The notes under the pieces: generated by a model
Databases searched by the model: none
What the model saw: only the letters and a program-made list of their open reading frames with translations
Told to the model about the DNA's origin: nothing
Position numbers and translations under genes: made by a program
Part shown: in pieces, positions 2,390-34,897 of the stretch
Layout: every line of letters starts with the position of its first letter
How positions within the stretch are numbered: the first letter of the stretch is position 1
Origin: Zygnema cylindricum
Taxonomy: Eukaryota; Streptophyta; Zygnematophyceae; Zygnematales; Zygnemataceae
Direction of reading: 5' to 3'
Assembly (NCBI GenBank): GCA_037447655.1
Contig: JBBHKE010002882.1
Coordinates: 339,612 to 403,611, forward strand
Length of the DNA: 64,000 bases

Positions 2390-2438
2390 ACTTTCCTAGT
2401 ATATTAAGTTAGTTCCATTAAAGATTGGTACCCTAGAG

Positions 2439-4931: not shown

Positions 4932-4978
4932 CCCCCCCTCAATTGAAGCACGGAGAGTATGTGTTTAGCCAAGTAGAC
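4932..4978 (-). pseudogene. Last codons and polypurine tract of the family-2 pol, split off by an insertion
   Basis: This short piece holds the final codons and stop of the family-2 pol and the tract GAGGGGGGG next to the LTR. It is separated from the rest of the pol (7542 upward) by the insert at 4979-7541. TAGAC occurs on both sides of that insert (4974-4978 and 7542-7546), as expected of a 5-bp target duplication. The pol frame is continuous if one TAGAC copy and the insert are disregarded. Confidence 0.7.
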
Positions 4979-7847: not shown

Positions 7848-7910
7848 ATATTCAGCTTCGGTAGATGAGAGAGCAACAGTTGGTTGTTTTCTAGAGGACC
7901 ATGAGACAAG

Positions 7911-9827: not shown

Positions 9828-10424
9828 CTATTTGTAAGATTGTTGTAATAGGCTTTCTTTTCCAAAAATGCGGAAGTGAGATACATTTGGCCTTTTTTTA
9901 TACCATGCCTCAAAAGGGGTTTTGTTTTTAAAAGCCGATGTGGGTGACCTATTACGGACATAACAAGCCGTTAGTACCGCTTCAGCCCAAAAAGATTGAG
10001 GTAAGGAGGCAAAATGCATCATGGATCGAGCCATATCGGCAAGGGTTCGATTGAGTCTTTCAGCATCCCCATTTTGTTGAGGTGTATGTGGAGCAGTTAA
10101 TTCATGAATTATGCCACATGATGCTAAGAATTCAGAAAATTCATGCGACAAATATTCCCCCCCGTTATCGCTTCTTAACATTTTTATACGGGAGGAGAAT
10201 TGGTTTTCAACGAGGGACTTAAAATGCTTGAAATGAGTAAAAGCTTCAGACTTATTTTTCATGAGATATACATGAGTGAATCGTGAATAATCATCGATAA
10301 AGGTAATGAAATACACAAAACCACTCAAACTCGGTATTCTCATTGGTCCACATATATCACTAGAAATAATACCAAGAAGAGAATTTGATTCAGAATAGCT
10401 TTTTGGAAAAGGTATTCGAGGCAT
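9828..10424 (-). pseudogene. copia family 2 integrase core
   Basis: The integrase inserts the cDNA into the genome. The D-D-E triad is visible: D in SSDICGPM, D in RSDNGGEY, and E in GDAERLNRT (the usual form is GVAER). The segment HTPQQNG precedes the glutamate. A stop separates it from the upstream protease frame near 10,440. A linker frame with SRDVIFNE follows at 9764-9354. Confidence 0.88.
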
Positions 10425-10460
10425 CTTTCCAATAATACATCCATTGCAAAAATCTAAATT

Positions 10461-11168
10461 TTAAGCATCAAAATAATCTAAGCCTGAAACAAGGCCTTTA
10501 CTAAGAGATGTTAAACTTTGTCTATTTAAATGGCCATATCGTAAATGCCATTTATGAAAACAAGAGGAGGAAGAAGAAGTTGCTACATTCGCATGCGCTA
10601 AATCTCTAAAAGATTTTAAAACATAGAGATTACCACATTTAATCCCTTTTCCAAGGGAAGAGTGGTTTGACGAGAAAAAAATGACTTTGTTTTCCGAAAT
10701 GACTCCAAAACTACCATTTCGCAGCGCCGTACCCACGGAGAAAAGGTTTTTTTTGAGTTCGGGTACATAATAAACATTTTCCAGAATGAGTGGTTCGGAG
10801 CTATTCGGATTTATGGCCACCTGTCCAACCATAGTAGATATTAGGACAAAATTATTTTCAAGCAAAATGCGTAAAGGAACATGAAGCATTACAAGATTCG
10901 TCATGATAGATTTTGTACATGACATGTGATGCGACGCACCCGAATCTACCAACCAATCAAAGTTATTACCTGATGCATTAAATGCGTACCCATAGTCCAT
11001 TGGAGGAATGGGAGCAGGTACGGAATTGGTGTGGTTGATAGGTGGCGCTTCTTGATTTACTACGTCAGATTGAAGGAGTGGTGGAGGAACGTTCGGCGCG
11101 TATTGAAAGTGAGGTGCCACGTTATACCACGGGGAAAGGGGACCGTAAGGACCGTACGAGGGAGTCAT
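10461..11168 (-). pseudogene. copia family 2 protease and pre-integrase region
   Basis: Pro-rich linker, then the aspartic protease site in FDWLVDSGASHHMS with an intact D-S-G, the strand LENVYYVPELKKNLFSV, and the pre-integrase motif KWHLRYGHLNRQSL. The protease would cut Gag-Pol during particle maturation. This segment is open over 235 codons, the best preserved part of the element together with integrase and RT. Confidence 0.85.
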
Positions 11169-12080
11169 GAATGCTGTAGTCGCGTGTCCAACGGGATTGT
11201 ACGCGACAGGCGGATTGTGCGGTGCTCTTGGATTTGGAGCGTTGTTTTTGTTTTGGCCGCCGCCGCCACCTGACGCACGTTCACGTTTTCAGGCGAGGAT
11301 TGGACACGCGTCGATTAAGTTATCTTTTTCTTTGCAGTATCTGCAAAAAATAGAAGATCCTACAGCACCTGGAATTTTATTTTTTGAAGCAAAAGTAGTT
11401 AGTGCCGTAGCGTCAGATGTCATCACATGTTTTTTTAATTTTTGTCTACTTTCTTCATAGACAAGTTGATTGGTTAGATCAGGTAGCGTGACATTTACAG
11501 GATTTTTGTCAATTGTACCAACAAAAGATTCAAAACTGGGCGGCAATCCTGCCTAAATCACGCTAATGAAATCTTCATGAGTAACAGGATAATTAATGCA
11601 TTTCAAACGACCAGCGTATGATTGTACTTTTTGTATAAAAGACAACATATCTTCGGACTTATCCTTTTCAAGAAGAATGAATTCGCGTCGAAGGGCCAAA
11701 CGATGTGGCCAGGTGTCGGTTTCATACGCGGCGCATAAAAGTCGCCACTCTTCATTTGCGGTTGTGGCACTTCGTACAAAATTCGCAATTGTACCATCCA
11801 ACGACAAAATGAGACGAGACAAAGCAATGGAGTCCTTTTCTTTCCACGCAATGATTGCAATCTGGGCGGCCGCAAAATCATCGTCATCCTCGTCTGGCAA
11901 AACTGAACTGATGGCATCTCCTATGACGTGGCCCCATAATTTTTCAAAACTAAATAAATGTTGGATGAGAAATTTCCAGTTGTAAAAATCCTGACCTTTA
12001 AATTTATGTACCGAGTTTGACACGGCCGAAGCCGTGGGCCCATAACCTAATAAATTAGCGGCCATAACAAAGGAAATCAT
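11100..12080 (-). pseudogene. copia family 2 gag with zinc knuckle
   Basis: The open frame from 12,080 to 11,553 holds the copia-type gag core (DFYNWKFLI, LSLDGTIANF, EEWRLLCAAYET, MLSFIQKVQSY), then a TAG stop where copy B has a sense codon. The frame continues from 11,546 with the PPSFESFVGTIDKNP motif and the knuckle CRYCKEKDNLIDAC (CX2CX4NX4C; the usual His is Asn here), then another stop and a Gly-rich basic tail. The ATG at 12,080 lies inside the predicted LTR, so the native start is probably nearer 12,029, where GTG is found in this copy. Confidence 0.8.
12034..12047 (-). promoter_or_regulatory. Half-tRNA primer-binding site of family 2, followed by a TTCG hairpin
   Basis: Reads GGTTATGGGCCCAC, a 14-base exact complement of the initiator tRNA-Met anticodon arm. 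The next bases form CACGGC-TTCG-GCCGTG, a six-pair stem with a TTCG loop whose first CAC overlaps the primer-binding site. The same site is present in copies A (4435-4448) and B (6964-6977). Confidence 0.7.
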
Positions 12081-12531
12081 TTAAAGGTACAGAACAAAAA
12101 AAACAAAAAGGTACAAAGTAAAAGAAAAAAAAAAAAAGACAGCAAGGACAAAAAAGACTGTCGTGAACTTAAGTTCAAAATGATAAAAGAATTGAATAAA
12201 AGACATTGTGAGACGCTTGAGTTTTATAGATGAACTCAAGCGTGTACGACGCACTATACTAAGTGGAGGTAAAACTAAGGAAGGTACAACTAATTTAGGT
12301 ACATCTAATAAGTGGAACTATGACTAATCAAGGTACATCTAGAAGTGGAGTTACAGCTAGGTAGAAAGATTCTAAATGTTTTAGTGGGAATCTTTCTACG
12401 CAACATCATTATGTACAAACAAGTACAGGAACACTAAATAAAGTGGTACACTTAAGACTTAGTGTTCTAGGACTTAGAAGTATCGTACGGAAAAGTGATT
12501 CAATAGTATAGTGGAATTACGAATTCCATCA
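12048..12531 (-). repeat. 5' LTR of the long copia family 2 element (about 484 bp)
   Basis: Starts TGATGGAATTCG (minus) and contains three strong inverted repeats: GTAGAAAGATTC at 12361-12372 with its complement at 12388-12399, an ACGCTTGAG / CTCAAGCGT pair, and the palindrome GAACTTAAGTTC. The left edge is set by the primer-binding site at 12034-12047. Confidence 0.7.
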
Positions 12532-15076: not shown

Positions 15077-15198
15077 CTAATTCCTCAGAATTTTAAACTT
15101 TATATTCCCAATTCGGGTACAAATAGCAAAACCCCACCTCTGAGCCGCAAGAAGCTCCTCCTCGTCGTCGCAGTTGTACCCCACACAGTACGCCCGCC
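15077..15198 (-). CDS. Exon 10, last exon of the F-box gene; lies outside the duplicated block
   Basis: Acceptor GGCTTAG, then codons starting RAYCVGYNCDDEEELLAAQ and ending at TAG (15077-15079). Phase 1 matches the exon 9 donor. It lies 530 bases below the start of the duplicated block (15,728), so the second gene copy has no equivalent. Confidence 0.85.
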
Positions 15199-17984
15199 CT
15201 AAGCCAAATAAGACAAAAAGACAAAAAAGACAAATAAGACAAAAAAAGAAAAAACAAAAAATATATATAAAAGACAAAAAAAAGATAAAAGACAAAGAAG
15301 ACAAAAAGTCAAAAAAGACAAAAGTGACAAAACAAAAAAGACAAAAGACAAAAAGAAAAAAATAAAAAGATAAAAAGATAAAAAAGACAAAGACAAGAAA
15401 AACAAAAAGACAAAAAAAAGGACATAAAAGACAAAAACTCACATGACACATCAGCAATCAGCAAATCCCCAGAGGAAATTTTTTCAGCAATCATGTCAAA
15501 TGCCACGTCAGCAATATCAGGTGACTTCTCAGCAAATCAGCAAAAGAAGGAACCATATCCTTTGCAATTTCTACACAAAACCAGCAAATCTCTCGAAATT
15601 ACCCTCATTTAAAGAGGAAATGCACAATCTTAAGAGGAATCGTACAATCTTATGCGTAATCGAGCAACCTTATAAGCAACTGCAATCTTATGAATAATCG
15701 TACGATCTTATGAGTAATTATACAATCTTATGAGTAATTGTGCAACCCATGAGTAATTGTACAACCCTACAATTTTATCTAGAGGCAGAAAATCCTAGCC
15801 ATTCAAAGAAACAGATATAAAGGCCTTAAAAAATCCTAAAAAACCCTAAAAAACCCAAACAGTACAGGGAGACTCTAAAACCTCCAAAACATGCAAATAA
15901 TAAAAATGTATTTAAAGAGATCATTTTCTGAATTTTCGACTTGGATTACCCTACAGAAAAAAAAGCAAAAAAAAAGAGCAGAAAATCTCAGAAATTACAA
16001 AACCTAATTGGCCCCGTCCTACATTTTCAAATTTAATTACAAATTTATCCAGAAATACAGAAGGAAAAAAACAAAAGGGAAACAAGAAAAGAAAAAAACA
16101 AACCTAATCGGCCAGGTCCCATAAGAGGCTCAGTTTCTTCTGCGGCCGAGGCAGGCCCTGCCTCCGATCGCACCTTAAAAAAAAAAAACATTTTTTTTTT
16201 TACTAAAAAAGTAACATGCTTTGTAACATTAATACAGCAATATCTAACATTAATTGATATAACATTGATTGAAATTAACGACATAAATTGAGGTAAAAAG
16301 TTAACATTGATCAAAGTTAATGCCATAAATTGAAGTGAAAAGTTCACATTGGTTGAAGCTAATGTTATACACTGAAGAAAAAAGTTCACATAAATTGAAG
16401 TCAATGTTATGAATTGAAATTTATGTTATAAATTGAAGCGAAAAGTTTACCCACTTGTTCCCTGGCGTCTTCCTCAGGAATCAGCAGGTGGTCAAAGCAC
16501 CGCCCAAATGTCAAACACACGAGAAATTGTTTGACAAATAATAACTAATACAATACATGTAAGGTTAATAAGAGTGTTGTGTATCGGGAAAAAACTTATC
16601 GCGATGAATTCGATATTCGATATATCGAATATCGAACGGTCAGAGGGCTCGATATTTCGGCCCGGGACCAACAAAAATTTTCGCGATATATTTGGTGGGA
16701 GGTGGGTGTCCGTACAGATTTAGTACGGAAATATTGTACGGTAAATCGTACGGAAGATTCCCCCCCTCTCCCCCTGCCCCCCGAGGGGGCCTTTGAAAAA
16801 AAAAATTGGGTTCCCCCCCGCCCCCCGAGGGAGCCTTTGAAAAAACAAATTGGAACCCAATGTCGCTTCGATATATCGCGGTACAAATTTATCGGCATAC
16901 CAAGCCAATATATCGGCAAAATATCGCGATATTGAGCTTCTCGATAAATCGAGACGATATATCTATTAACGGAAACCTAAAATTAGGTACATATCGAATA
17001 TCGGCAAGGGGCCCTCGATACACAACACTAATTAAATATGAATTGAGAGGGATTAGTTAATTATACCCACTTGTTCTGCGACATTTTCGTCATCAGCGGA
17101 CACCAGTCAGTAGAAACAAAAGAGAAGTGAAAAGTTAATATTATAAATAGAGGTGAAAAGTCAATTATACCCACTTCTTCCGCAGCGTCTTTTCCTCAAG
17201 GGTCAGCAACCCAGTTAAAGGACAGTACCAATGAACGTGAAAAGTTCAAATTTGAGTATTAATGGAAGTGATTAGATAAAATGTAATACCAACAAAAGTG
17301 AAAAGTTAATTATACCCAGTTGGTCCCTGGCGGCTTCCTCCTCAGGAGTAAGCAAATCAGTTAAAAGTTAGTCCAGATTGAAATGAAAAGTTAAATTTTC
17401 ATACTAATAGTAGTGATTAGGTCAAATGTAATATTAATAAAAGTGAAAAGGGGATAATACCCACTTGGTCCCCAGCGTCTTCCTCCTCAGGAGTCAAAAG
17501 TCGGTCAAAACATCGTCCAGAAATAGAACAAACAAGGAGTTGGTTGTCGGGATCTAAAAAAGTTTCCATACAATTTTCGTCGCAAACTGAACAGAGGAGC
17601 AAAAAAAAACCAAAACAAAGACATATCAGGATATTAAGAATCAATCACAGCAATAATCAGCACCAGAATAATAAGAAGAAAAAGGGTGTTAGGGACTCTT
17701 TAAAGAATATAGGGAGAAAATCCTCATCGTGAGATCATCCTGTCCCTTCACAAAGATAAATGTTTCCGATTTGATTAAAAGCACAAATCGCAAGAATTCT
17801 CTTACATTTATCGTTAACTAACTCTAACAATGTAACAATGTCTAAAAACACTACTGCAAATGAACAGTTTTTACATTTTGTTAAGATCCTCACCATGAGC
17901 TTGTCGGGAGAGTGAGAGAGTGGGAGAGAGGAGAGATAGAAAGAGCGCGAGAACAAGGGAGAGAGAGGGGCGGGAAGAGAGAGG

Positions 17985-18040
<56 letters not shown>

Positions 18041-18405
18041 ATCCTCACCATGGGCTCGTCCTGTCCCTTCACAAAGATAAACATCTCCAATTTGATGAAA
18101 GGCACAAATCGCACCGCTACAACTGTGGTTTCCGAGATAAACATCTGGCATGTTCTGTTTCTTCCTCCATGAAGTTATTTCCTGAGCTAAGTTTGATTCT
18201 ACAACAACAAGGTCATCGTGAACCTGAGAGAGAGAGGGAGAGGGAGAAATGGAGATAAAGGGGGAGAGAGAGAGGGAGAGGGGGAGATAAAAGGGAGAGA
18301 GAGAGGGAGAGAGAGGGAAAGGAAGAGAAGAGAGAGAACAAAACCAACAAAAGTCAGTAAGTTATTTTCTGAGCTAGTTTTATTCTACAGCTACAAGGTC
18401 GTCGT

Positions 18406-18464
<59 letters not shown>

Positions 18465-21400
18465 AAAATTGACTAGAGTAAGTTGGTAGATACCTATCTT
18501 CGTTTCTTCCCTTTCTTTGCTTTCTTGCTTTTAAAAAAAACCCTAAAATCTTAAAATTCCCAAAATTCCTAAAAGAACTCCCTAAAAAACCCTAAAAATA
18601 CCCAAAAAATACCCGAAAGCTTCCTATTTTTCCATTCTCCCTGTTCTCCCTTTTTTCCTTCCTCTCTTTTTGTTTTTTTACCTCGTGGGCCCTCGCGGCT
18701 CGGCTCCTCTTAATCGCCTGCATAAAGATATAGTACTGTTAAACCCCCCCATGAAAAACCCAAAAAACCCCTAAAAAATCCTAAAAAAAACCATAAAAAA
18801 ACCCTAAAAACCCTCTTTTTGTTCTTATTACCTCGTGGGCCCTCGGGGCCTGGCTCCTCTTGGCGGCCTGCATGTGGATGTAGTACTCTCGAAACTCCTC
18901 AGGGGAATTCCGTACAAACTCATGCATGTCCGTACAGTCACGCTGCACCCCCATTGGACCCCCCCAGGACCCACTTTTTTATCGTTAAATTAGAGATGGA
19001 GAGGGAGAGGGAGAGGGAGAGGGAGATGGGGAGGGAGATGGGGAGGGAGAGGGAGTGAGGTGCATGTTTTACATATCTTTGTTTATATATATATATATAT
19101 ATATAAATTTACCTCAAAATAAAGTTGTTTCCAACTGACACCTCGTGGCCGACCTCGCAGGGCTCCCCACCGAAGACAGTATCTGGAAAAGCAGTATTGT
19201 CAAATTATCAAAAAGCCAGTTTTCCAAGTAACAAAAAACAGTAATGTGAAATTATCAAAAACAGTATTGTCAACGTATCAAAAACAGTATCGTCATATCA
19301 TCAGCAAAAAGGTATAGTCAAACTATCAAAAAACTAGCAAGTCTGAAATAATGGCAAAGAATATCCGAAAAAAAGAATGAAAAAAATAGAAAACATATTT
19401 TACATGAAAAATGGAAATAGTTTTATATTTAAAACATATGCATATATGCATATATATATATATACATATGTATATGACTTACAAACGCCTCCATAGATTT
19501 TCCTCTCCACAGGCGAGTTTCAAATAGTGGCAAACCGTCGAACAGGCCGACAAATCCTGAGGCAAAAAAATAAAAATAAAAAAATGGAAATAATAATAAT
19601 GTGGAAATAAACTAAAGTGAGAAAAAAAAAATAATAACAGTGGGGGGGAAACATCGTGGAATAGGGAAAAACATAGAGAGGGATGATGCTTAAATATTCT
19701 TAATATTGACGAGGATTTTTTAGGCTGATCTGTTGTACGTGGGTAGCTCTTCAAAACAAACAGTTGAAAAATTATAGATTCAATCATTTAAATTTGATGT
19801 CATTAACTTTAGCACCGAAAAAAATATATATACATACATAGATGTTTAGGATTTATAATAAATAAACTTTATCGAATGGCTCATAGAAATAATTAGTGTT
19901 GTGTATCGGTAAATTTCCTATCCCGATAAATCCGATAACAGATATTATCGATTATCGAACAGCAAAAAGGGCCCAATATATCCGTAAAAACCCTAAACAA
20001 CCCTAAAAAACAATCTGGGACAATTAAACGTGTTATTGCCGATATATGTAAATATATGGTAGTCCCAAACCCTAATGTATATAGAATGTCATGTCACGTA
20101 TCACAATCCGGTCCGTACTTTGTACTATGAAAGTACAAAACTCCAACCCCGACTGCGCAACACTTACGTACAAAAAAGCCGTACTTTATAAGACCAAAAA
20201 GTACAAGAACGAAATTTTAGCAAGAAAGTACAAAACAATTTTGACTTTTTGAAAGTTACTCTTACGTTAAATTTTGTGCAATCTTCTATATGCATGAAGA
20301 CCTACCTTACTTTGTTACTTAAACATACATTATTTTGGCCTTTTTCTTACGTGAGAATCCTATTTCGTGCATGTAGACATGGCATTGATTTGTTGTTTTC
20401 TTTAGTTTATGTTATCTTTAGTAATCACGTTGACTAAGACAACATTATATTAAAATTAATGAAAAACGAGTATTTACTATTTAATGTGCATATTCGTTGT
20501 AAACAGAGTTTGTATTATTTTAGAGCATTGAATTTGCTTGTCTCTTTCGATCATTAGAAATCTAATTTTTAACCACTAGTTTCTCTCTTTGCAGAATATC
20601 AATTCTAGGCTAAAGACATTCTATGAAGGGGGTAAGGGCATAGAAACAAATGAAACCTTACAAAAATCTCTAAAAGCCAAGTCAAATATCGCGATATTTT
20701 TTTATCGGCATATTGGGCCGATATATTGGTAAAATATCACGATAATTTCTTTATCAGTATATCGAACCGATATATCGATTATTGGTAGGTCAAAAAAAGG
20801 TACAAATTACCGGTAAGAGGCTACCGATACACAACACTAGAATTAATGATATGACGCAAAAAGAAGGAAAAAAAAACATGGCCAAAAAAAAACAAAAAAC
20901 ATAGTAAGAAAAAGAAATACCTCTCGCAATCGACATTTCAATATATATAAAAAGTTCCATGGGAAGTTGAAAAACATAGCAGGAAAAAAAAAAAACACAA
21001 AGCAAAAAGGGAAAAAAAAAGCACAGCAGAAAAGGACAAAACGGTAGAGCAAAACGAAAAGAAAAAAACAGCACTGCTTATAGGTATTTCAAAATATGCA
21101 ACAAGGGTCCCATAGGAAGTTTCCCAAAAAAGATGAAACAACTGTGCAAATAAAGAAAGCAAAATAAATAAATAAGAAAAAAAATAAAAAAAACAAAACC
21201 AAAGCATAACAAAAAAAAAAAAATAGTACCTCTGGTGATAGGTATTTCAATATATACGGAAAAAGTTCTGTGGGAAGTTTCCCGAAAGAACCGGAATAAA
21301 CAGTCCGTTTGGAGACCGAAAGATCAAATTTTGGAGAATTTTGAAGCACACAACTTTCCACTTTTTCTGAATTCTCGTTCTCCTGGACAAAGAAAAAAAA

Positions 21401-23973
21401 GAAGAAGTTATTTTTTCTATTTAAAAAAAAGGAGAACTGTTTTTTGTTTGAAAACAAAGAGATTATTTTATTTTTTAAAATGTTTTTTTTTTTGTTATTT
21501 CGAAATTACATATACATATCTATACATATATATATATACATATAAATATATTTATGTATGTGTGTGTATATGTGGTATATGTGTGTATATACATGTATAT
21601 GTATATATACCTGTCTATACATATACATAATGTATATACATACATATACATACATATATATACATATATATACATATATATACATATAATACATATACAA
21701 ACACATAAATACGTATATATACATATATATACACACACACACACAGACATCTATGAAACAAAAAAACACATAATCAGATGATCTTACATTTCCACAAAAA
21801 CTACTCGTTTCTTTTTCCGAGTCCAGAAGCTCTGTCTCCAGAAAATCCGCCAGCTCTTGATCCTCCCTGCCACCCTCCCTCAAATACACAAAATTATATA
21901 CACATACAAAATTACAATACGGAATAACACAAATTTATACAAAATCAAACAAAATACAACACCGAATTACCCAAAAACATACAAAATTATACAAAATTAT
22001 GCAATATTATACAGAATTATACAAAATTATGCTATTTTATACAACATTTTATACAGAAGTAAGCAAAATTATACTATTTTATACAATTGTAAACAATATT
22101 TATACAAACTTATATAATTACCTTAACAGCTTCAAGGCCTCACTATGACCCACTGCCGCCCTCTCACTGATACACACAATACTTCTCATGTGCCTGTTTA
22201 CATCAACAGCTACACCGTAAATTTCTATTAAAGTCAATGTTTTTTTCGCAACTTCCATCATCTTTTCTCTGTGCACACTTTTCCAATTTATATTTAGACA
22301 CCGCCTATCGAGGGTAAGAACCTTACCATCCCATCGCAACCGTCGGATCAACAATCCGACAAGTGTGCACGGAGAAATAAGACACGTTGCAAAACAGAAT
22401 TTAGTGTAGTTTATTCCAGCAACGTGTTAACGATAACAATTCGTGCACTCTAATAGCGATAAGCGATGTAGTTATATAAACAGATAAACATATCAAAAGC
22501 TAATTCTGTAAACAGTTGTAAACAGACATAAAAAAACAGGTAAATCTATAAACAGATATTTATATCAAAGATTAGTTTGTAAAGAAAGAGATATATATAA
22601 CCAGCTGCAATTATAAACAGCTAGTTAAATAAAAAAATTAAATTATCAGCGGCGAAATGTATAAACAGATATTTATATATGCAGATATATGTGTAAAAAT
22701 TTAGTCACATAAACAGGCTCCTACAAACAAATATTTACATAAAAAGTTAGTTACATAAACAGATACATACATAAACAGCTAATTCTATCAAGAGCAACTT
22801 ATGTAATCTGTAAACAGATATACATTGCGGCCGCAGGTGTATAAAGAGATATTTACATAAATAACCATTTTAACAACTAGTTATTTACCTATTTCTATCA
22901 ACAACTGATTCTATAAACAAATAATCATATCAACGGTTACTTCTAAAAACAGATATTTATACAACCAGAAATTTATATGACAAGTTAGTGACATAAACAG
23001 AAATAAAAGTCAGCATCTAATTCAATAAACAAATATTTATATCTAAAGTGATTCTATAGACATATATTTTTATCAATAGTTAATTTTATAAACAAATACC
23101 TAGATAAACAGATATTTGTTTAAACAGCTAGATATATAAACAACTACACTGCCCATTGCAATTAGCGTTAACAACACTATTTCAGGGAGCAGGCTACAAT
23201 CCGCCACCTCTCCTTACCTTAAATTAGTATTATACTTCTAATTCCGCATTTCGACTAATAATTCCTTGACAGTACTAGCGATGGGCGATGTAGCCATATA
23301 AACAGATATTCATATCAGCATATACATATATAAACAAATGCTTGTTGACCTATTTCTATCAACAACTAATTCTATAAAGAGATTTTTCTAAATAGATAAA
23401 CAGATATTTTAACAATTTGATAGGTGTAAAAAATATAGTTTATAGAAACACCAGCTGCTAATAGACCTATTTAAGCAGCAAATTCTATAAACAGATATGT
23501 CTATAAACAGAATTTATATAAACATATATGCATAGCTTTTTATATTAACAGCTTCATATTTACATGTTAATATCAACAGCTAATTGTATACTTATTTTTG
23601 ATATACGTATCAGCAGCTAATTCTATAAAAATATATATAAACAGCTAGAACAAACATATGTTATCAGTTGTATACAGCATGTTGATATATGATATATGCT
23701 GTACTTCAGCTGCAATTTATAAAGATACAATTAAATATATAAACAGATATTTACAAACAACAGCTCCTCACCTCGCCATATACATATGCTGCAGATATTT
23801 CTATCAACAGGTATTTCTATAAAGAGATGTTTATATGAACAGCTTTTTATACAAATACTTCTTTACCTATTTCTATCAACAACTAATCCTATAAACAGAT
23901 GTTTAGAGACAACAGCTCCTCACCTCTCCTGGTCCTCACTGTGGCACCTGCCTCCCTCTTCGTCGGAGCTCAT
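15077..23973 (-). CDS. F-box protein gene, ten exons, FBP7-like; complete copy
   Basis: Predicted substrate adaptor of an SCF (SKP1-cullin-F-box) ubiquitin ligase. Exons: 23973-23924, 21878-21788, 21382-21230, 19556-19483, 19182-19113, 18942-18832, 18223-18049, 17586-17461, 16157-16104, 15198-15077. Every boundary is GT-AG and in phase; the exons sum to 1,026 bases, i.e. 341 residues plus a TAG stop. The F-box runs from about residue 83 (LPTELFPYILKYLSPE) to 122 (DLSACSTVCHYLKLACGEEN, then LW), split by intron 3. Then come SWKQLYFE (about 139-146) and MQAAKRSQAP (about 170-179). The Cys/His-rich C-terminal part holds CSGAIC, YLCEGTGRAH, CDENC and LLVCSISGRCFDRLL (about 220-276), and GYNCDDEEEL closes it. 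The layout resembles plant F-box protein 7 as I remember it; orthology is unverified. Weak points are the exon 2 acceptor, which has little pyrimidine tract, and the exon 9 acceptor. Confidence 0.85.
16158..17460 (-). pseudogene. Decayed partial copies of exon 8 within intron 8
   Basis: Four short blocks on the minus strand, ending near 16,452, 17,068, 17,167 and 17,308, repeat the 3' part of exon 8 (GRCFD-LL-PEE-DA--QV) and each is followed by a GT at the donor position. The one near 16,452 keeps FGRCFDHLLIPEEDAREQV; the others carry stops or frameshifts. None has a good acceptor, so they are read as remnants of local tandem duplication, not as working exons. Confidence 0.6.
16573..17029. 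mobile_element. MITE-like element E, short copy (intron 8)
   Basis: Terminal inverted repeats AGTGTTGTGTATCG and CGATACACAACACT. The interior is rich in GATATATCG-type palindromes and two CCCCCGAGG-containing tracts. It codes for nothing. No clear target duplication; hAT-type origin is possible but unproven. Its copy in the second block is 27,251-27,708. Confidence 0.65.
17461..18223 (-). CDS. Exons 7 and 8 of the F-box gene (Cys/His-rich domain)
   Basis: Exon 7 (18223-18049) ends in CEGTGRAH plus one base. Exon 8 (17586-17461) completes a Val codon and continues CDENCMETF, so the joined pattern is C-x4-C, then C, H, C-x3-C, C-x5-C spread over about 65 residues, which suggests a metal-binding fold. 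Exon 8 is symmetric (phase 1 in, phase 1 out). The intron between them contains a decayed copy of exon 7 (17,740-17,815) with an in-frame stop, and the intron after exon 8 contains four decayed copies of exon 8. Confidence 0.85.
17900..18040. repeat. GA microsatellite in intron 7
   Basis: (GA)n with GGGAGA variants. The same tract type recurs at 18,224-18,330, 18,413-18,465 and 18,993-19,055. On the gene's strand it is CT-rich, and the 18,224-18,330 tract forms the pyrimidine tract of the exon 7 acceptor. Confidence 0.85.
19895..20838. mobile_element. MITE-like element E, long copy (intron 3)
   Basis: The same termini, AGTGTTGTGTATCGGT and ACCGATACACAACACT, here 944 bp apart. It shares an ATCGGCATA…CCGATATATTGG subterminal block with the short copy, so the two are length variants of one family. 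Its copy in the second block is at about 30,570-31,513. Confidence 0.65.
21230..21382 (-). CDS. Exon 3 of the F-box gene (first half of the F-box)
   Basis: Acceptor TTTGTCCAG and donor GAG|GTACTA bound 51 whole codons (phase 0 in and out). The last 16 residues, LPTELFPYILKYLSPE, are the SKP1-contacting start of an F-box. The F-box continues in exon 4 (19556-19483), which has acceptor TTTGCCTCAG and donor GTAAGT. Splitting a ~40-residue F-box by a 1.7-kb intron explains why no single ORF shows the domain. Confidence 0.9.
21498..21755. repeat. TA/CATA microsatellite in intron 2
   Basis: Alternating ATATACATAC and related units. Several long apparent reading frames here consist only of Tyr, Ile and Cys repeats and are not genes. 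The copy-2 equivalent is 32,190-32,435. Confidence 0.85.
22122..22261 (-). CDS. Possible alternative first exon of the F-box gene
   Basis: From ATG ATG at 22261 the frame runs 46 codons (MMEVAKKTLTLIEIYG…) and ends in TTAAG|GTAATT. This phase-2 donor would join exon 2 in frame exactly as exon 1 does. The frame is also open upstream to about 22,445, with no acceptor AG in it. It is preserved in copy 2 (32,810-32,949). It could be a second promoter product or an unrelated exon trapped in intron 1. No known domain recognised. Confidence 0.4.
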
Positions 23974-24115
23974 CTTTAACTAATATTAGGGTTTCAAAAA
24001 TTTATAAAAGCAGCTGCTTATTCACCTATTTATATCAACAGCCCCTTATATAAACAGGATTTTGTACAAACAGCTAACTATATAAACAGATGCTTATTAT
24101 TGATTTCTTTTGATA
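22470..24115. repeat. Degenerate AT-rich satellite based on TATAAACAGATATTTATA
   Basis: Dozens of imperfect copies of a motif alternating ATAAACAGATATTTA with ATCAACAGCTAATTCT fill intron 1 and part of exon 1's flank. In copy 2 (33,160-34,990) the array contains two added TA runs, at 33,349-33,427 and 34,485-34,560. Confidence 0.75.
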
Positions 24116-24449
24116 CAAACAGCGTTTTAGATGCCTAATAAAATCTCCAGAAAAGTACAAGATCTGCAAAGGTACAATTTCTGCAAGCCAAAGCAGAAAA
24201 AAAAACAGGACAGACCGAAAGATAACAGGAATTTAAATATTCTACTTTAGGTGGAAAGAACTTAGATTTGTGAAAGAAATAATTTCTACAAATTTTCTCA
24301 AATTTAGGATCAAATCCCACGCAGGCTATCAGGAAACAGAGATGAAAATATGGCTTGCTTCAGAATAGGTTCCGATTTCCGATATATAATTTTTGAGATT
24401 GAATATCGTCTCATAAAATTCCATATCGAACAACATCACAGCCTTCTAC

Positions 24450-24884
24450 AGAGGTCGCAATCGGGTACCCGAATCCGTACCCGACCGTTACCCGACCGCC
24501 CGCCTCGGATCCGGAACGGATTCGGGTGGAGAATTTTGGGGGCCGACCGGATTCGGGCGGGTGATTTAAAAAACAAAATCGGGTACGATCGGGTAAGAAA
24601 AATGAAATTAAAGGTTTTGTATTGTCCATGCTATCCAACATTATTGTACTTTGTAATCTTGGTATAAGGGAGATGTACCGCTAATTTTGTACGTATTCGG
24701 GTACAAGTGGGTAGGGTTGTCGCTAGAAATCCAATTTCGGTTAACTTTAATTTCCGTATACGAATATCGGGAAAAGGGTAATAATTTAGGAGCGTGACAT
24801 AACCTGGTCGGGCATCGAGTTTTTAGATTTTGAAAAAAAAATTGTCAGTTTTGGGTATCTAAAATTTTGACTTTTGCGACCTCT
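24450..24884. mobile_element. Possible small inverted-repeat element with TCGGGTA repeats
   Basis: Bounded by AGAGGTCGCAA and TTGCGACCTCT. The left interior is dense in CGGGTA/TACCCG words. The related copy in the second block is at 35,301-35,745. No target duplication is seen, so the mobile-element reading is tentative. Confidence 0.45.
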
Positions 24885-24961
24885 GCCAACAAGTGCACTA
24901 ATGAACCACTTGATTTATGTCACACTGAATAACATTATTTTTGACGCGCTACAAGAACTTA

Positions 24962-25206
24962 GGGTGTGTGCCCATGTTTTCAAGTAAGGGTATTATTTCC
25001 CTCGTCTTCACAAAAAATGGGACATGCAACAAGAAAATCTTGCGCCATACGAAAAAATGGGCAAGAACCAAAGTACATTTTGCGTCATCTTGGAACTTGG
25101 GAAGTACTTCAATTTGGCATTGTTATCATTTCAAGCCACTTCTACGTCACGCCAGCTCATTTTCACACTTGTAATGTTTCTTTTCTCTTAATACAAAATT
25201 TTCTTA
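24962..25206. mobile_element. MITE D, left part
   Basis: Starts GGGTGTGTGCCCATG after TTA. It shares the subterminal block AGTACATTTTGCGTCATC…GGAACTT with the other GGG…CCCATG elements. It is interrupted at TTA (25,204-25,206) by MITE C and its right end is not found. The copy-2 counterpart starts at 36,837. Confidence 0.55.
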
Positions 25207-25930
25207 GGGTACGACCCCATGTGCCTAAGTTAAGGTTTATTTCTGTCACATTCTTTCAAAATGTAGAGCTGTATTGCCTAAGTTGTGACCGTACTAAGAA
25301 GTCGCAAATTTGTACAGTATAATTTGCGTTATTCTTGAACTTACGATCGTATTGTGTTTTTTCGACCCACTGTCACGTCATCTTTGATCTTACCATAAAC
25401 CACATCGGCAATGTGTTTTAAGCTAAGTAAACTATTTACACCAAAAGGAAAACATATTCCCACGTGTGAAGTTTTCAAAAGCTTTTGACGACTGAAAAAA
25501 GTACACGGCTGTTCATTTTTGTCCGCATGCACCTTGTACGGTTTTTATTTGATGGGGTCTTGATGGTGCAGTGTCATTTCACGTAAAGGTGAAAAATCTG
25601 CGAAGGTGAAAAACCCAGATGGGAGAGGTTTAAGCAAAGGCTTGTTTTACATCCACGGGTGCAAGGCTGTACGTCTACGATGTCACGCAATGACATGCGA
25701 CATGCCAACTCGTTTCAAAAATTACGACATGCCTTGCGACGCTTCAAAAAGTTTCGAAAAATACGGTGCGGCATGACAGATAGTACACGATGACAACCGT
25801 CACGGGCATTGTCGAATTATTAAATCGTCACGCCATTAAGTGAAAATTTGAATAAAAACATAAGGACACTTAAAATCCAGTTCCGCCGGATCTGTAAGTT
25901 TGTTAAGTTACAAATACATGGGGCCATACT
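25207..25930. mobile_element. MITE C, complete, 724 bp, TTA target duplication
   Basis: Left end GGGTACGACCCCATGT, right end ACATGGGGCCATACT, imperfect inverted repeats flanked by TTA at 25,204-25,206 and 25,931-25,933. The three-base TTA duplication and the GGG start suggest the PIF/Harbinger superfamily. Non-coding. Partial relatives lie at 37,129-37,540 (left part) and about 52,060-52,265 (right part, with a perfect ACATGGGGACGTACCC end and TTA). Confidence 0.65.
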
Positions 25931-26405
25931 TTAATAAAAAAAAATGACATCATGTAACGCACGCAAAAAATAAAAACCACAAAAACAAATGAACAGACAG
26001 ATGAACAAACACTTGTGTTGTTTAGAATCAATGTTTCGCTGACAGACGGACGCTTAAAATTGACGAGCTTAGCAATTCCTTGCCAACTGAAGATCTTGTC
26101 CGTCAAATGAATGTTTTTTGAAAAGGCATTGCCAAAGAAGATCCTGACTATCCGGTGGATGCTTTTTGTAGTTTCGCCGCTTGATGCTTTTTGTAGTTTC
26201 GGCGCTTGATTGCAGTGCTATACTGTACATCCTAATGTCGACGGGCCATTGGTCCACTTCTAATGTCAATGTTTGGGAAATTTTAACGATTTGGGAGATT
26301 GTGACTGTCACAACCGCTCAAATCAGTCCAATTCTTCCAAAACGGACATGCAAGACGAAAAGTGACTCAACGTGCGAGATCTAAAACAGTAAAAGTGGTA
26401 GGATG
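25931..26405. other. Unique spacer between the duplicated blocks
   Basis: No gene seen. Contains two tandem copies of a ~27-bp unit starting GATGCTTTTTGTAGTTTCG (about 26,158-26,211). No exon resembling exon 10 of the F-box gene is present here. Confidence 0.6.
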
Positions 26406-26722
26406 TTATGAGTAATTGTGCAACCCATGAGTAATTGTACAACCCTACAATTTTATCTAGAGGCAGAAAATCCTAGCCATTCAAAGAAACAGATATAAAG
26501 GCCTTAAAAAATCCTAAAAAACCCTAAAAAACCCAAACAGTACAGGGAGACTCTAAAACCTCCAAAACATGCAAATAATAAAAATGTATTTAAAGAGATC
26601 ATTTTCTGAATTTTCGACTTGGATTACCCTACAGAAAAAAAAGCAAAAAAAAAGAGCAGAAAATCTCAGAAATTACAAAACCTAATTGGCCCCGTCCTAC
26701 ATTTTCAAATTTAATTACAAAT

Positions 26723-28663
26723 TTATCCAGAAATACAGAAGGAAAAAAACAAAAGGGAAACAAGAAAAGAAAAAAACAAACCTAATCGGCCAGGTCCCAT
26801 AAGAGGCTCAGTTTCTTCTGCGGCCGAGGCAGGCCCTGCCTCCGATCGCACCTTAAAAAAAAAAAACATTTTTTTTTTTACTAAAAAAGTAACATGCTTT
26901 GTAACATTAATACAGCAATATCTAACATTAATTGATATAACATTGATTGAAATTAACGACATAAATTGAGGTAAAAAGTTAACATTGATCAAAGTTAATG
27001 CCATAAATTGAAGTGAAAAGTTCACATTGGTTGAAGCTAATGTTATACACTGAAGAAAAAAGTTCACATAAATTGAAGTCAATGTTATGAATTGAAATTT
27101 ATGTTATAAATTGAAGCGAAAAGTTTACCCACTTGTTCCCTGGCGTCTTCCTCAGGAATCAGCAGGTGGTCAAAGCACCGCCCAAATGTCAAACACACGA
27201 GAAATTGTTTGACAAATAATAACTAATACAATACATGTAAGGTTAATAAGAGTGTTGTGTATCGGGAAAAAACTTATCGCGATGAATTCGATATTCGATA
27301 TATCGAATATCGAACGGTCAGAGGGCTCGATATTTCGGCCCGGGACCAACAAAAATTTTCGCGATATATTTGGTGGGAGGTGGGTGTCCGTACAGATTTA
27401 GTACGGAAATATTGTACGGTAAATCGTACGGAAGATTCCCCCCCCTCTCCCCCTGCCCCCCGAGGGGGCCTTTGAAAAAAAAAATTGGGTTCCCCCCCGC
27501 CCCCCGAGGGAGCCTTTGAAAAAACAAATTGGAACCCAATGTCGCTTCGATATATCGCGGTACAAATTTATCGGCATACCAAGCCAATATATCGGCAAAA
27601 TATCGCGATATTGAGCTTCTCGATAAATCGAGACGATATATCTATTAACGGAAACCTAAAATTAGGTACATATCGAATATCGGCAAGGGGCCCTCGATAC
27701 ACAACACTAATTAAATATGAATTGAGAGGGATTAGTTAATTATACCCACTTGTTCTGCGACATTTTCGTCATCAGCGGACACCAGTCAGTAGAAACAAAA
27801 GAGAAGTGAAAAGTTAATATTATAAATAGAGGTGAAAAGTCAATTATACCCACTTCTTCCGCAGCGTCTTTTCCTCAAGGGTCAGCAACCCAGTTAAAGG
27901 ACAGTACCAATGAACGTGAAAAGTTCAAATTTGAGTATTAATGGAAGTGATTAGATAAAATGTAATACCAACAAAAGTGAAAAGTTAATTATACCCAGTT
28001 GGTCCCTGGCGGCTTCCTCCTCAGGAGTAAGCAAATCAGTTAAAAGTTAGTCCAGATTGAAATGAAAAGTTAAATTTTCATACTAATAGTAGTGATTAGG
28101 TCAAATGTAATATTAATAAAAGTGAAAAGGGGATAATACCCACTTGGTCCCCAGCGTCTTCCTCCTCAGGAGTCAAAAGTCGGTCAAAACATCGTCCAGA
28201 AATAGAACAAACAAGGAGTTGGTTGTCGGGATCTAAAAAAGTTTCCATACAATTTTCGTCGCAAACTGAACAGAGGAGCAAAAAAAAACCAAAACAAAGA
28301 CATATCAGGATATTAAGAATCAATCACAGCAATAATCAGCACCAGAATAATAAGAAGAAAAAGGGTGTTAGGGACTCTTTAAAGAATATAGGGAGAAAAT
28401 CCTCATCGTGAGATCATCCTGTCCCTTCACAAAGATAAATGTTTCCGATTTGATTAAAAGCACAAATCGCAAGAATTCTCTTACATTTATCGTTAACTAA
28501 CTCTAACAATGTAACAATGTCTAAAAACACTACTGCAAATGAACAGTTTTTACATTTTGTTAAGATCCTCACCATGAGCTTGTCGGGAGAGTGAGAGAGT
28601 GGGAGAGAGGAGAGAGAGAAAGAGCGCGAGAACAAGGGAGAGAGAGGGGCGGGAAGAGAGAGG

Positions 28664-28717
<54 letters not shown>

Positions 28718-29082
28718 ATCCTCACCATGGGCTCGTCCTGTCCCTTCACAAAGATAAACATCTCCAATTTGATGAAAGGCACAAATCGCACCGCTACAAC
28801 TGTGGTTTCCGAGATAAACATCTGGCATGTTCTGTTTCTTCCTCCATGAAGTTATTTCCTGAGCTAAGTTTGATTCTACAACAACAAGGTCATCGTGAAC
28901 CTGAGAGAGAGAGGGAGAGGGAGAAAGGGAGATAAAGGGGGAGAGAGAGAGGGAGAGGGGGAGATAAAAGGGAGAGAGAGAGGGAGAGAGAGGGAAAGGA
29001 AGAGAAGAGAGAGAACAAAACCAACAAAAGTCAGTAAGTTATTTTCTGAGCTAGTTTTATTCTACAGCTACAAGGTCGTCGT

Positions 29083-29143
<61 letters not shown>

Positions 29144-32100
29144 AAAATTGACTAGAGTAAGTTGGTAGATACCTATCTTCGTTTCTTCCCTTTCTTTGCT
29201 TTCTTGCTTTTAAAAAAAACCCTAAAATCTTAAAATTCCCAAAATTCCTAAAAGAACTCCCTAAAAAACCCTAAAAATACCCAAAAAATACCCGAAAGCT
29301 TCCTATTTTTCCATTCTCCCTGTTCTCCCTTTTTTCCTTCCTCTCTTTTTGTTTTTTTACCTCGTAGGCCCTCGCGGCTCGGCTCCTCTTAATCGCCTGC
29401 ATAAAGATATAGTACTGTTAAACCCCCCCATGAAAAACCCAAAAAACCCCTAAAAAATCCTAAAAAAAACCATAAAAAAACCCTAAAAACCCTCTTTTTG
29501 TTCTTATTACCTCGTGGGCCCTCGGGGCCTGGCTCCTCTTGGCGGCCTGCATGTGGATGTAGTACTCTCGAAACTCCTCAGGGGAATTCCGTACAAACTC
29601 ATGCATGTCCGTACAGTCACGCTGCACCCCCATTGGACCCCCCCAGGACCCACTTTTTTATCGTTAAATTAGAGATGGAGAGGGAGAGGGAGAGGGAGAG
29701 GGAGATGGGGAGGGAGATGGGGAGGGAGAGGGAGTGAGGTGCATGTTTTACATATCTTTGTTTATATATATATATATATATATAAATTTACCTCAAAATA
29801 AAGTTGTTTCCAACTGACACCTCGTGGCCGACCTCGCAGGGCTCCCCACCGAAGACAGTATCTGGAAAAGCAGTATTGTCAAATTATCAAAAAGCCAGTT
29901 TTCCAAGTAACAAAAAACAGTAATGTGAAATTATCAAAAACAGTATTGTCAACGTATCAAAAACAGTATCGTCATATCATCAGCAAAAAGGTATAGTCAA
30001 ACTATCAAAAAACTAGCAAGTCTGAAATAATGGCAAAGAATATCCGAAAAAAAGAATGAAAAAAATAGAAAACATATTTTACATGAAAAATGGAAATAGT
30101 TTTATATTTAAAACATATGCATATATGCATATATATATACATATGTATATGACTTACAAACGCCTCCATAGATTTTCCTCTCCACAGGCGAGTTTCAAAT
30201 AGTGGCAAACCGTCGAACAGGCCGACAAATCCTGAGGCAAAAAAAAAAAAAAAAAAAAATGGAAATAATAATAATGTGGAAATAAACTAAAGTGAGAAAA
30301 AAAAAATAATAACAGTGGGGGGGAAACATCGTGGAATAGGGAAAAACATAGAGAGGGATGATGCTTAAATATTCTTAATATTGACGAGGATTTTTTAGGC
30401 TGATCTGTTGTACGTGGGTAGCTCTTCAAAACAAACAGTTGAAAAATTATAGATTCAATCATTTAAATTTGATGTCATTAACTTTAGCACCGAAAAAAAT
30501 ATATATACATACATAGATGTTTAGGATTTATAATAAATAAACTTTATCGAATGGCTCATAGAAATAATTAGTGTTGTGTATCGGTAAATTTCCTATCCCG
30601 ATAAATCCGATAACAGATATTATCGATTATCGAACAGCAAAAAGGGCCCAATATATCCGTAAAAACCCTAAACAACCCTAAAAAACAATCTGGGACAATT
30701 AAACGTGTTATTGCCGATATATGTAAATATATGGTAGTCCCAAACCCTAATGTATATAGAATGTCATGTCACGTATCACAATCCGGTCCGTACTTTGTAC
30801 TATGAAAGTACAAAACTCCAACCCCGACTGCGCAACACTTACGTACAAAAAAGCCGTACTTTATAAGACCAAAAAGTACAAGAACGAAATTTTAGCAAGA
30901 AAGTACAAAACAATTTTGACTTTTTGAAAGTTACTCTTACGTTAAATTTTGTGCAATCTTCTATATGCATGAAGACCTACCTTACTTTGTTACTTAAACA
31001 TACATTATTTTGGCCTTTTTCTTACGTGAGAATCCTATTTCGTGCATGTAGACATGGCATTGATTTGTTGTTTTCTTTAGTTTATGTTATCTTTAGTAAT
31101 CACGTTGACTAAGACAACATTATATTAAAATTAATGAAAAACGAGTATTTACTATTTAATGTGCATATTCGTTGTAAACAGAGTTTGTATTATTTTAGAG
31201 CATTGAATTTGCTTGTCTCTTTCGATCATTAGAAATCTAATTTTTAACCACTAGTTTCTCTCTTTGCAGAATATCAATTCTAGGCTAAAGACATTCTATG
31301 AAGGGGGTAAGGGCATAGAAACAAATGAAACCTTACAAAAATCTCTAAAAGCCAAGTCAAATATCGCGATATTTTTTTATCGGCATATTGGGCCGATATA
31401 TTGGTAAAATATCACGATAATTTCTTTATCAGTATATCGAACCGATATATCGATTATTGGTAGGTCAAAAAAAGGTACAAATTACCGGTAAGAGGCTACC
31501 GATACACAACACTAGAATTAATGATATGACGCAAAAAGAAGGAAAAAAAAACATGGCCAAAAAAAAACAAAAAACATAGTAAGAAAAAGAAATACCTCTC
31601 GCAATCGACATTTCAATATATATAAAAAGTTCCATGGGAAGTTGAAAAACATAGCAGGAAAAAAAAAAAACACAAAGCAAAAAGGGAAAAAAAAAGCACA
31701 GCAGAAAAGGACAAAACGGTAGAGCAAAACGAAAAGAAAAAAACAGCACTGCTTTTAGGTATTTCAAAATATGCAACAAGGGTCCCATAGGAAGTTTCCC
31801 AAAAAAGCTGAAACAACTGTGCAAATAAAGAAAGCAAAATAAATAAATAAGAAATAATAAAAAAAAAAAAAAAAAAAAAAACAAAACAAAAGCATAACAA
31901 AAAAAAAAATAGTACCTCTGGTGATAGGTATTTCAATATATACGGAAAAAGTTCTGTGGGGAGTTTCCCGAAAGAACCGGAATAAACAGTCCGTTTGGAA
32001 ACCGAAAGATCAAATTTTGGAGAATTTTGAAGCACACAACTTTCAACTTTTTCCGAATTCTCGTTCTCCTGGACAAAGAAAAAAAAGAAGTTATTTTTTC

Positions 32101-33347
32101 TATTTAAAAAAAAGGGAGAATTGTTTTTTGTTTGAAAACAAAGAGATTATTTTATTTTTAAAATGTTTTTTTTTTTGTTATTTCGAAATTACATATACAT
32201 ATCTATACATATATATATATATATACATATAAATATATTTATGTATGTGTGTGTATATGTGTGTATATACATGTATATGTATATATACCTGTCTATGCAT
32301 ATACATAATGTATATACATACATATACATACATATATATACATATATATACATATATATACATATATATACATATAATACATATACAAACACATAAATAC
32401 GTATATATACATATATATACACACACACACACAGACATCTATGAAACAAAAAAACACATAATCAGATGATCTTACATTTCCACAAAAACTACTCGTTTCT
32501 TTTTCCGAGTCCAGAAGCTCTGTCTCCAGAAAATCCGCCAGCTCTTGATCCTCCCTGCCACCCTCCCTCAAATACACAAAATTATATACACATACAAAAT
32601 TACAATACGGAATAACACAAATTTATACAAAATCAAACAAAATACAACACCGAATTACCCAAAAACATACAAAATTATACAAAATTATGCAATATTATAC
32701 AGAATTATACAAAATTATGCTATTTTATACAACATTTTATACAGAAGTAAGCAAAATTATACTATTTTATACAATTGTAAACAATATTTATACAAACTTA
32801 TATAATTACCTTAACAGCTTCAAGGCCTCACTATGACCCACTGCCGCCCTCTCACTGATACACACAATACTTCTCATGTGCCTGTTTACATCAACAGCTA
32901 CACCGTAAATTTCTATTAAAGTCAATGTTTTTTTCGCAACTTCCATCATCTTTTCTCTGTGCACACTTTTCCAATTTATATTTAGACACCGCCTATCGAG
33001 GGTAAGAACCTTACCATCCCATCGCAACCGTCGGATCAACAATCCGACAAGTGTGCACGGAGAAATAAGACACGTTGCAAAACAGAATTTAGTGTAGTTT
33101 ATTCCAGCAACGTGTTAACGATAACAATTCGTGCACTCTAATAGCGATAAGCGATGTAGTTATATAAACAGATAAACATATCAAAAGCTAATTCTGTAAA
33201 CAGTTGTAAACAGACATAAAATAAGTCTAAAAACAGATATTTATATCAAAGATTAGTTTCTAAAGAGAGAGATATATATAACCAGCTGCTCTTATAAACA
33301 GCTAGTTAAATAAAAAAATTAAATTATCAGCGGCAAAATGTATAAAC

Positions 33348-33430
<83 letters not shown>

Positions 33431-34486
33431 GATATATGCGTAAAAATTTAGTCACATAAACAGGCTCCTACAAACAAATATTTACATAAAAAGTTAGTTA
33501 CATAAACAGATACATACATAAACAGCTAATTCTATCAAGAGCAACTTATATAATCTGTAAACAGATATACATTGCGGCCGCAGGTGTATAAAGAGATATT
33601 TACAAAAATAACCTTTTTAACTAGTTATTTACCTATTTCTATCAACAACTGATTCTATAAACAAATAATCATATCAACGGTTACTTCTAAAAACAGATAT
33701 TTATACAACCAGAAATTTATATGACAAGTTAGTGACATAAACAGAAATAAAAGTCAGCATCTAATTCAATAAACAAATATTTATATCTAAAGTGATTCTA
33801 TAGACATATATTTTTATCAATAGTTAATTTTATAAACAAATACCTAGATAAACAGATATTTGTTTAAACAGCTAGATATATAAACAACTACACTGCCCAT
33901 TGCAATTAGTGTTAACAACACTATTTCAGGGAGCAGGCTACAATCCGCCACCTCTCCTTACCTTAAATTAGTATTATACTTCTAATTCCGCATTTCGACT
34001 AATAATTCCTTGACTGTACTAGCGATGGGCGATGTAGCCATATAAACAGATATTCATATCAGCATATACATATATAAACAAATGCTTGTTGACCTATTTC
34101 TATCAACAACTAATTCTATAAAGAGATTTTTCTAAATAGATAAACAGATATTTTAACAATTTGATAGGTGTAAAAAATATAGTTTATAGAAACACCAGCT
34201 GCTAATAGACCTATTTAAGCAGCAAATTCTATAAACAGATATGTCTATAAACAGAATTTATATAAACATATATGCATAGCTTTTTATATTAACAGCTTCA
34301 TATTTACATGTTAATATCAACAGCTAATTGTATACTTATTTTTGATATACGTATCAGCAGCTAATTCTATAAAAATATATATAAACAGCTAGAACAAACA
34401 TATGTTATCAGTTGTATACAGCATGTTGATATATGATATATGCTGTACTTCAAGCTGCAATTTATAAAGAGCTCCTCTCCTGGTAA

Positions 34487-34566
<80 letters not shown>

Positions 34567-34897
34567 TGCAGATACTTATATCAACAGGTAATTCTATATA
34601 GATATTAAAAACATTTTTTTACACAACTGCTGCTTTAACTATTGCTATCAACAATTAAATCTATAAACAGATATTTACAAACAACAGCTCCTCACCTCGC
34701 CATATACATATGTTGGAGATATTTCTATCAACAGGTATTTCTATAACGAGATGTTTATATGAACATCTTTTTATACAAATGCTTCTTTATCTATTTCTAT
34801 CAACAACTAATCCTATAAACAGATGTTTACAGACAACAGCTCCTCACCTCTCCTGGTCCTCACTGTGGCACCTGCCTCCCTCTTCGTCGGAGCTCAT
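26723..34897 (-). pseudogene. F-box gene, second copy, missing the last exon
   Basis: Exons by direct comparison: 34897-34848, 32566-32476, 32068-31916, 30231-30158, 29861-29792, 29621-29511, 28900-28726, 28265-28140, 26835-26782. All nine keep their frames and GT-AG sites. Exon 10, with the GYNC motif, is absent because the duplication starts inside intron 9. Reading through the exon 9 donor gives about 20 non-homologous residues to a stop at 26,723. Four substitutions seen in exon 3 relative to copy 1 are all synonymous. It is either a truncated paralogue that may still make an F-box protein or a young pseudogene. Confidence 0.8.

What the first reader, a model, noticed from the sequence alone, without database searches (positions are those of the whole stretch)
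15077..23973. A complete ten-exon F-box gene with no single-ORF signal
Seen: ten minus-strand segments, each bounded by GT-AG, join without a frame break into 1,026 bases ending in a stop. The joined product has an F-box split between exons 3 and 4, a SWKQLYFE segment and a Cys/His-rich C-terminal domain. Agreement of nine phase constraints with the domain order is very unlikely by chance. Known: F-box proteins link substrates to SCF ligases. Inferred: FBP7-type orthology, from memory of the ISGRCFDRLL and GYNC motifs.
Basis: partly seen in the sequence, partly recalled or inferred. Interest (0 to 1): 0.8.

Follow-up and report, generated by a model that had tools for sequence, protein, structure and literature searches.

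The report
SKIP31 F-box gene with truncated twin
This is an ordinary plant-type gene for SKIP31, a protein that marks other proteins for destruction; its main oddities are a nearly identical neighbouring copy that lacks the last exon, and introns littered with worn copies of the gene's own exon edges.

Summary
Ten minus-strand exons with nine GT-AG introns join into 1,026 nt and 341 residues. Nine of ten exons (2-10) match one family profile, in order and in frame; exon 1 and the last ~19 residues lack support. The family is F-box protein SKIP31 by the names of its relatives, not FBP7: an F-box plus a conserved Cys/His domain that Pfam marginally scores as Herpes_UL92. It most likely is the substrate receptor of an SCF ubiquitin ligase. 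In an unrooted tree it lies apart from the sampled land plants, so the host is probably a streptophyte alga.

The finding does not mention two things. A second copy (26782-34897) encodes the same protein in exons 1-9 (4 of 904 nt differ, all synonymous, all in exon 3) but lacks exon 10. Gene bodies are nearly identical while 5' flanks are 88% alike, which suggests gene conversion. The introns also hold at least seven decayed copies of exon edges. Verdict: a new member of a known family with interesting but ordinary gene dynamics.

The parts
23924..23973 (-). Copy A exon 1 (start codon; residues 1-16)
   Evidence: ATG and GT donor; no homology support on its own; identical in copy B
21788..21866 (-). 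Copy A exon 2 (residues 17-43); alternative in-frame acceptor gives start 21878
   Evidence: profile match positions 11-31, E 0.0012
21230..21382 (-). Copy A exon 3 (first part of F-box)
   Evidence: profile match E 2e-9; F-box-like 77-121
19483..19556 (-). Copy A exon 4 (most of the rest of the F-box)
   Evidence: profile match E 5e-9
19113..19182 (-). Copy A exon 5 (end of F-box, SWKQLYFE)
   Evidence: profile match E 1e-7
18832..18942 (-). Copy A exon 6
   Evidence: profile match E 1.5e-18
18049..18223 (-). Copy A exon 7 (start of Cys/His domain)
   Evidence: profile match E 4e-26; Herpes_UL92 216-265
17465..17586 (-). Copy A exon 8 (rest of Cys/His domain)
   Evidence: profile match E 1e-18
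16104..16173 (-). Copy A exon 9
   Evidence: profile match E 0.001
15077..15198 (-). Copy A exon 10 (RAYCVGYNCDDEEELLAAQR, then an unconserved tail and stop; the tail may not be coding)
   Evidence: profile match E 5e-8 to residue ~322; tail resembles a downstream repeat; one place found in the assembly
26782..34897 (-). Copy B: exons 1-9 at 34848-34897, 32476-32554, 31916-32068, 30158-30231, 29792-29861, 29511-29621, 28726-28900, 28144-28265, 26782-26851; no exon 10 found
   Evidence: 4 of 904 nt differ from A, all synonymous in exon 3
15725..23983 (.). Gene-body block of copy A shared with B 26403-34906; breakpoint in intron 9
24045..24964 (.). 5' flank of A, collinear with 34898-35826 upstream of B, 88% identical; holds a dispersed ~440-bp repeat (24449-24888)
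25203..25929 (.). Dispersed ~727-bp repeat between the copies, about 40 long matches at 76-82% among the 40 candidates scored of 4,613
20906..21129 (-). Intron 3: two decayed copies of the exon-3 tail with donor side (21074-21129 and 20935-20968)
18682..18737 (-). Intron 6: decayed copy of exon-6 tail (80% over 56 nt, GT donor kept)
18359..18409 (-). Intron 6: decayed copy of exon-7 head, preceded by a pyrimidine tract as the true exon is
17735..17792 (-). Intron 7: decayed copy of exon-7 tail (88% over 58 nt)
17030..17377 (-). Intron 8: three decayed tandem copies of exon-8 tail + donor (17320-17377, 17139-17205, 17030-17111)
16455..16533 (-). Intron 8: fourth decayed copy of exon-8 tail (71% over 82 columns)
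19895..20838 (.). Element with 14-nt inverted ends (AGTGTTGTGTATCG) in intron 3
16573..17029 (.). Shorter element with the same inverted ends in intron 8

Best explanation
Copy A is a working SKIP31-type F-box gene. Its F-box would dock on SKP1 in an SCF ubiquitin ligase, and the conserved Cys/His (probably zinc-binding) domain plus the C-terminal GYNC segment would bind the substrate, which is then ubiquitinated and degraded (domains shown here; SCF assembly, zinc and substrate inferred). Copy B is a tandem copy that lost or never received exon 10 and is probably a truncated pseudogene, kept nearly identical to A by recent gene conversion (inferred). The long introns grew partly by tandem duplication of stretches that straddle exon-intron boundaries; the copied exon edges then decayed (sequence shown, process inferred).
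For: Homology to plant SKIP31: the 120 listed hits (of 284) have E 5e-106 to 8e-83 and cover 59-94% of the query. F-box-like 46.5 bits, cutoff 24.3. Nine of ten exons match collinearly in frame. H212, C214, C219, C230, H237, C239, C243, C257, C263 and C311 are invariant in 19 aligned rows (the window protein and 18 relatives picked from the 120). PMC12647438 (one passage seen): Arabidopsis SKIP31 promotes degradation of JAZ6 and JAZ11. A/B exon difference 4 synonymous, 0 non-synonymous (~0.003 by chance under uniform change). Exon 10 found at one place in the assembly. Substitutions are clustered: 30 of 37 lie in 909 of 7,998 bp (islands drawn after seeing the data); of 20,000 random placements 0 reached the observed summed squared gaps and 3 the longest gap. 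Seven edge copies score 39-74 bits against at most 29.2 in 20 shuffles.
Against: No transcript evidence. Exon 1 and the tail after residue ~322 lack homology support, and the tail resembles a downstream repeat. The clustered A/B differences partly sit in AT-rich low-complexity DNA, a possible mutation hot spot; without 21539-21619 (28 substitutions left) 3 of 20,000 placements reach the squared gaps and 81 the longest gap. The clustering count left out the substitution at 15727 and those from 23726 upward, and all gaps. No solved or viral fold matched the Cys/His domain. Working state of A, conversion and intron growth were not tested directly.
Confidence: 0.9

Rival explanations
1. Copy B is an assembly artefact: the second haplotype of the same locus laid in tandem. 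(Concerns copy B only; not exclusive with A being SKIP31.)
For: Gene bodies ~99.9% identical outside two islands, a level usual for alleles; at least five pairs of F-box hits have equal scores on different contigs, so the assembly may hold uncollapsed haplotypes.
Against: 5' flanks only 88% alike; exon 10 is missing from B; no N run at the joint (the only N run in the window is 715-724); no near-identical third place for the 5' flank and no second place for exon 10 among the candidates scored (40 of 4,041, 40 of 544).
Confidence: 0.2
2. Copy B is expressed and functional as a truncated SKIP31 without the C-terminal segment, for example as a competitor of A.
For: Protein identical over 301 residues and all four differences synonymous.
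Against: Residues of the GYNC segment lost with exon 10 are invariant in 19 aligned rows; reading on past exon 9 meets a stop after about 19 unrelated residues. Recent conversion alone would explain the identity.
Confidence: 0.12
3. The gene is an FBP7 orthologue.
Against: None of 120 listed hits (of 284) is named FBP7; the specifically named ones are mostly SKIP31.
Confidence: 0.03
4. The Cys/His domain is a true relative of herpesvirus UL92 and works in transcription rather than substrate binding.
For: PF03048 21.9 bits, cutoff 21; 31 of 33 relatives match at E<=0.01.
Against: Only profile positions 8-56 of 191 match; the first of those relatives, P0011, stays under the cutoff (19.1 bits); no fold match in viral models, though the models were poor overall.
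Confidence: 0.1

Closest known systems
F-box protein SKIP31 (land plants; Arabidopsis SKIP31)
   Same: Order of F-box, middle region, Cys/His domain and GYNC end; 47-55% identity to 18 relatives, 62% at best in local alignment
   Different: Shorter loop after LRWG than in most relatives, and its own C-terminal tail; apart from the land-plant rows in the tree; boundary copies in the introns; gene structures of the relatives were not compared
P0018, unnamed EukProt transcript protein
   Same: Groups with the window protein (97/86); shares the short loop, VCDENC and DPDN
   Different: Long N-terminal extension, long branch; 51% identity
Intron gain by tandem duplication across an intron-exon boundary in a potato RdRp gene (PMC4974935; abstract seen)
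   Same: Tandem duplication across a splice boundary with splice signals copied
   Different: Here the copies sit inside introns and lengthen them; no new exon or intron is shown
Herpesvirus UL92 family (PF03048)
   Same: Short Cys/His motif over ~50 residues just above Pfam's cutoff
   Different: Most of the UL92 profile is not matched

Membership tests
SKIP31 | F-box near the N-terminal side | tested here: met
   PF12937 residues 77-121, 46.5 bits vs cutoff 24.3
SKIP31 | Conserved Cys/His domain after the F-box (scored as Herpes_UL92) | tested here: met
   21.9 bits vs 21; keeps the Cys/His columns invariant in 19 aligned rows
SKIP31 | C-terminal RAY..GYNC.DE.EL segment | tested here: met
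SKIP31 | Collinear homology over the length | tested here: met
   443 bits, residues 13-322 of 341
SKIP31 | Binds SKP1/ASK and acts in an SCF ligase | not testable with these tools
   needs a binding assay
SKIP31 | Targets JAZ repressors (Arabidopsis) | not testable with these tools
   needs an assay; the one Jas-motif hit in the genome reads like a CCT motif of ZML type (that name is recalled)
FBP7 | Closest full-length homology to FBP7 | not tested
   FBP7 itself was not compared; none of 120 listed hits (of 284) bears the name
Herpesvirus UL92 | Match over most of the UL92 profile | tested here: not met
   positions 8-56 of 191
Herpesvirus UL92 | Shared fold | tested here: inconclusive
   nothing at E<=0.001, models weak

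The most novel reading that the evidence does not exclude
SKIP31 predates its only substrates known to me. If the host is a streptophyte alga without the land-plant COI1/JAZ pair, the SCF-SKIP31 ligase had an older target, and copy B, a version without the C-terminal segment held identical by gene conversion, could be a regulatory partner rather than a pseudogene.
Probability: 0.12. Interest if true: 0.5.

Novelty: new member of a known kind. Interest (0 to 1): 0.27.

Why it matters
The gene extends SKIP31 to a lineage that lies apart from the sampled land plants. [quoted passage not shown] SKIP31 would then be older than the COI1-JAZ pathway in which it acts in Arabidopsis (PMC12647438, one passage), and its first target becomes a testable question. 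The locus is also a clear example of intron growth by duplication across splice boundaries, and of patchy homogenisation between tandem copies.

Full report
Observation. Joined on the minus strand they give 1,026 nt and 341 residues, with GT-AG at all nine introns. Pfam finds F-box-like at residues 77-121 and a marginal Herpes_UL92 match at 216-265. A profile built from 33 relatives (alignment A2, picked from the 120 listed hits; the window protein was not among them) matches the joined product with 443 bits over residues 13-322. Split by exon and frame, nine of ten exons match in the correct frame and in order; the best wrong-frame match has E 0.97. Exon 1 has no homology support. The exon-2 acceptor has an in-frame alternative 12 nt upstream.

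Identity. A search of about 5.8 billion proteins gave 284 hits, 120 of them listed; those with a specific gene name are mostly 'F-box protein SKIP31', and none of the 120 is named FBP7. Identity is 62% at best, and the match covers most of the protein outside the F-box. The alignment of 19 rows keeps a set of invariant Cys and His residues (H212, C214, C219, C230, H237, C239, C243, C257, C263, C311 in window numbering), as expected for zinc binding, which is inferred. In a 34-row tree (33 of the 120 listed proteins and the window protein; midpoint root for drawing only) the window protein groups with two unnamed proteins, P0018 (97/86) and, next, P0026 (95/86). A branch of 98/96 separates 30 rows, which include every row with a land-plant name, from these three and P0036. 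P0036's locus name looks like Spirogloea muscicola (recalled). The four rows outside have long branches, so the placement is good but not final. The host assembly has 352.8 Mb in 2,689 contigs and is unnamed. A streptophyte alga is the best guess.

Mechanism. SKIP31 is an F-box protein; F-box proteins bring substrates to SCF ubiquitin ligases (established knowledge). [quoted passage not shown] If the host lies outside land plants, its SKIP31 cannot rely on a COI1 orthologue in the strict sense. A Jas-motif search of the genome gave one hit, above the cutoff, whose surroundings read as a CCT motif like that of ZML proteins (name recalled); this does not exclude a JAZ gene.

The second copy. Exons 1-9 recur at 34897-26782 with every splice site kept; exon 10 does not recur, and a search of the assembly with its DNA found one place (40 of 544 candidates scored). 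The shared block begins inside intron 9, at 15725 in A and 26403 in B. In exons 1-9, 4 of 904 nt differ; all are third-position synonymous changes in exon 3. Over 7,998 bp of gene body 37 substitutions occur, 30 of them in two islands of 909 bp (drawn after seeing the data); outside these the distance is 0.1%. Left out of that count: the substitution at 15727, those from 23726 upward, and all insertions and deletions. Random placement reached the observed clustering in 0 of 20,000 (squared gaps) and 3 of 20,000 (longest gap); without the AT-rich run 21539-21619, 3 and 81 of 20,000. Upstream of the start codon, identity falls to 88% over 0.9 kb, although both copies carry the same dispersed repeat in the same place. 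An older duplication with later patchy gene conversion explains this best. A haplotype laid in tandem is the main rival; the 88% flank, the missing exon 10 and the lack of other haplotigs among the scored candidates speak against it, while equal-scoring F-box pairs on different contigs speak for uncollapsed haplotypes in general. Read past exon 9, copy B meets a stop after about 19 unrelated residues.

The introns. Seven intronic stretches match exon edges at 39-74 bits: exon 3 twice, exon 6, exon 7 head and tail, exon 8 twice. The best of 20 dinucleotide shuffles scored 29.2, and four other stretches of the window at most 24.7. Comparisons that include the flanks add two further exon-8 copies and show that the repeats run across the splice site into the intron, for example 240 columns at 75% around the exon-8 donor. 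A possible exon-9 copy is weak, and matches at exons 4 and 5 are AT microsatellites. The copy of exon 7's head carries an in-frame stop. Duplication across an intron-exon boundary is known from a potato gene, where it made a new intron (PMC4974935, abstract seen). Here it has lengthened introns. Whether this is common in the genome was not tested, because the search meant for it (PF00118) did not complete.

UL92. The Pfam match is short (positions 8-56 of 191), seen in 31 of 33 relatives at E<=0.01, and some plant records already carry the name; a soybean survey lists Herpes_UL92 among domains of F-box proteins (PMC5412402, one passage seen). Fold searches were uninformative. No claim of common origin is made.

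Verdict.

Noticed in passing
871-12528 and 43472-61925: Several Copia-type retroelement pieces: 4 of 8 open frames tested have reverse transcriptase, integrase, pre-integrase or gag domains above Pfam's cutoff, one more a weak integrase match; pieces recur within the window at 75-97% identity.
   Followed up: partly
16573-17029, 19895-20838 (and 27251-27708, 30570-31513 in copy B): Two different-sized elements with identical 14-nt inverted ends AGTGTTGTGTATCG, one in intron 8 and one in intron 3; they look like non-autonomous DNA transposons. No clear target-site duplication by eye.
   Followed up: partly
25203-25929 and 24449-24888: Two dispersed repeats of ~727 and ~440 bp, each with about 40 long matches among only 40 scored candidates, so true numbers are probably higher.
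   Followed up: partly
L033:1501-1575: The genome's only Jas-motif hit (contig C1534:23002-23076, minus strand) reads as a CCT motif, like that of ZML proteins (name recalled).
   Followed up: partly
15207-15437: Intron 9 of copy A holds a long TTTTGTCTTT tract related to many places in the genome.
   Followed up: no
   Followed up: no
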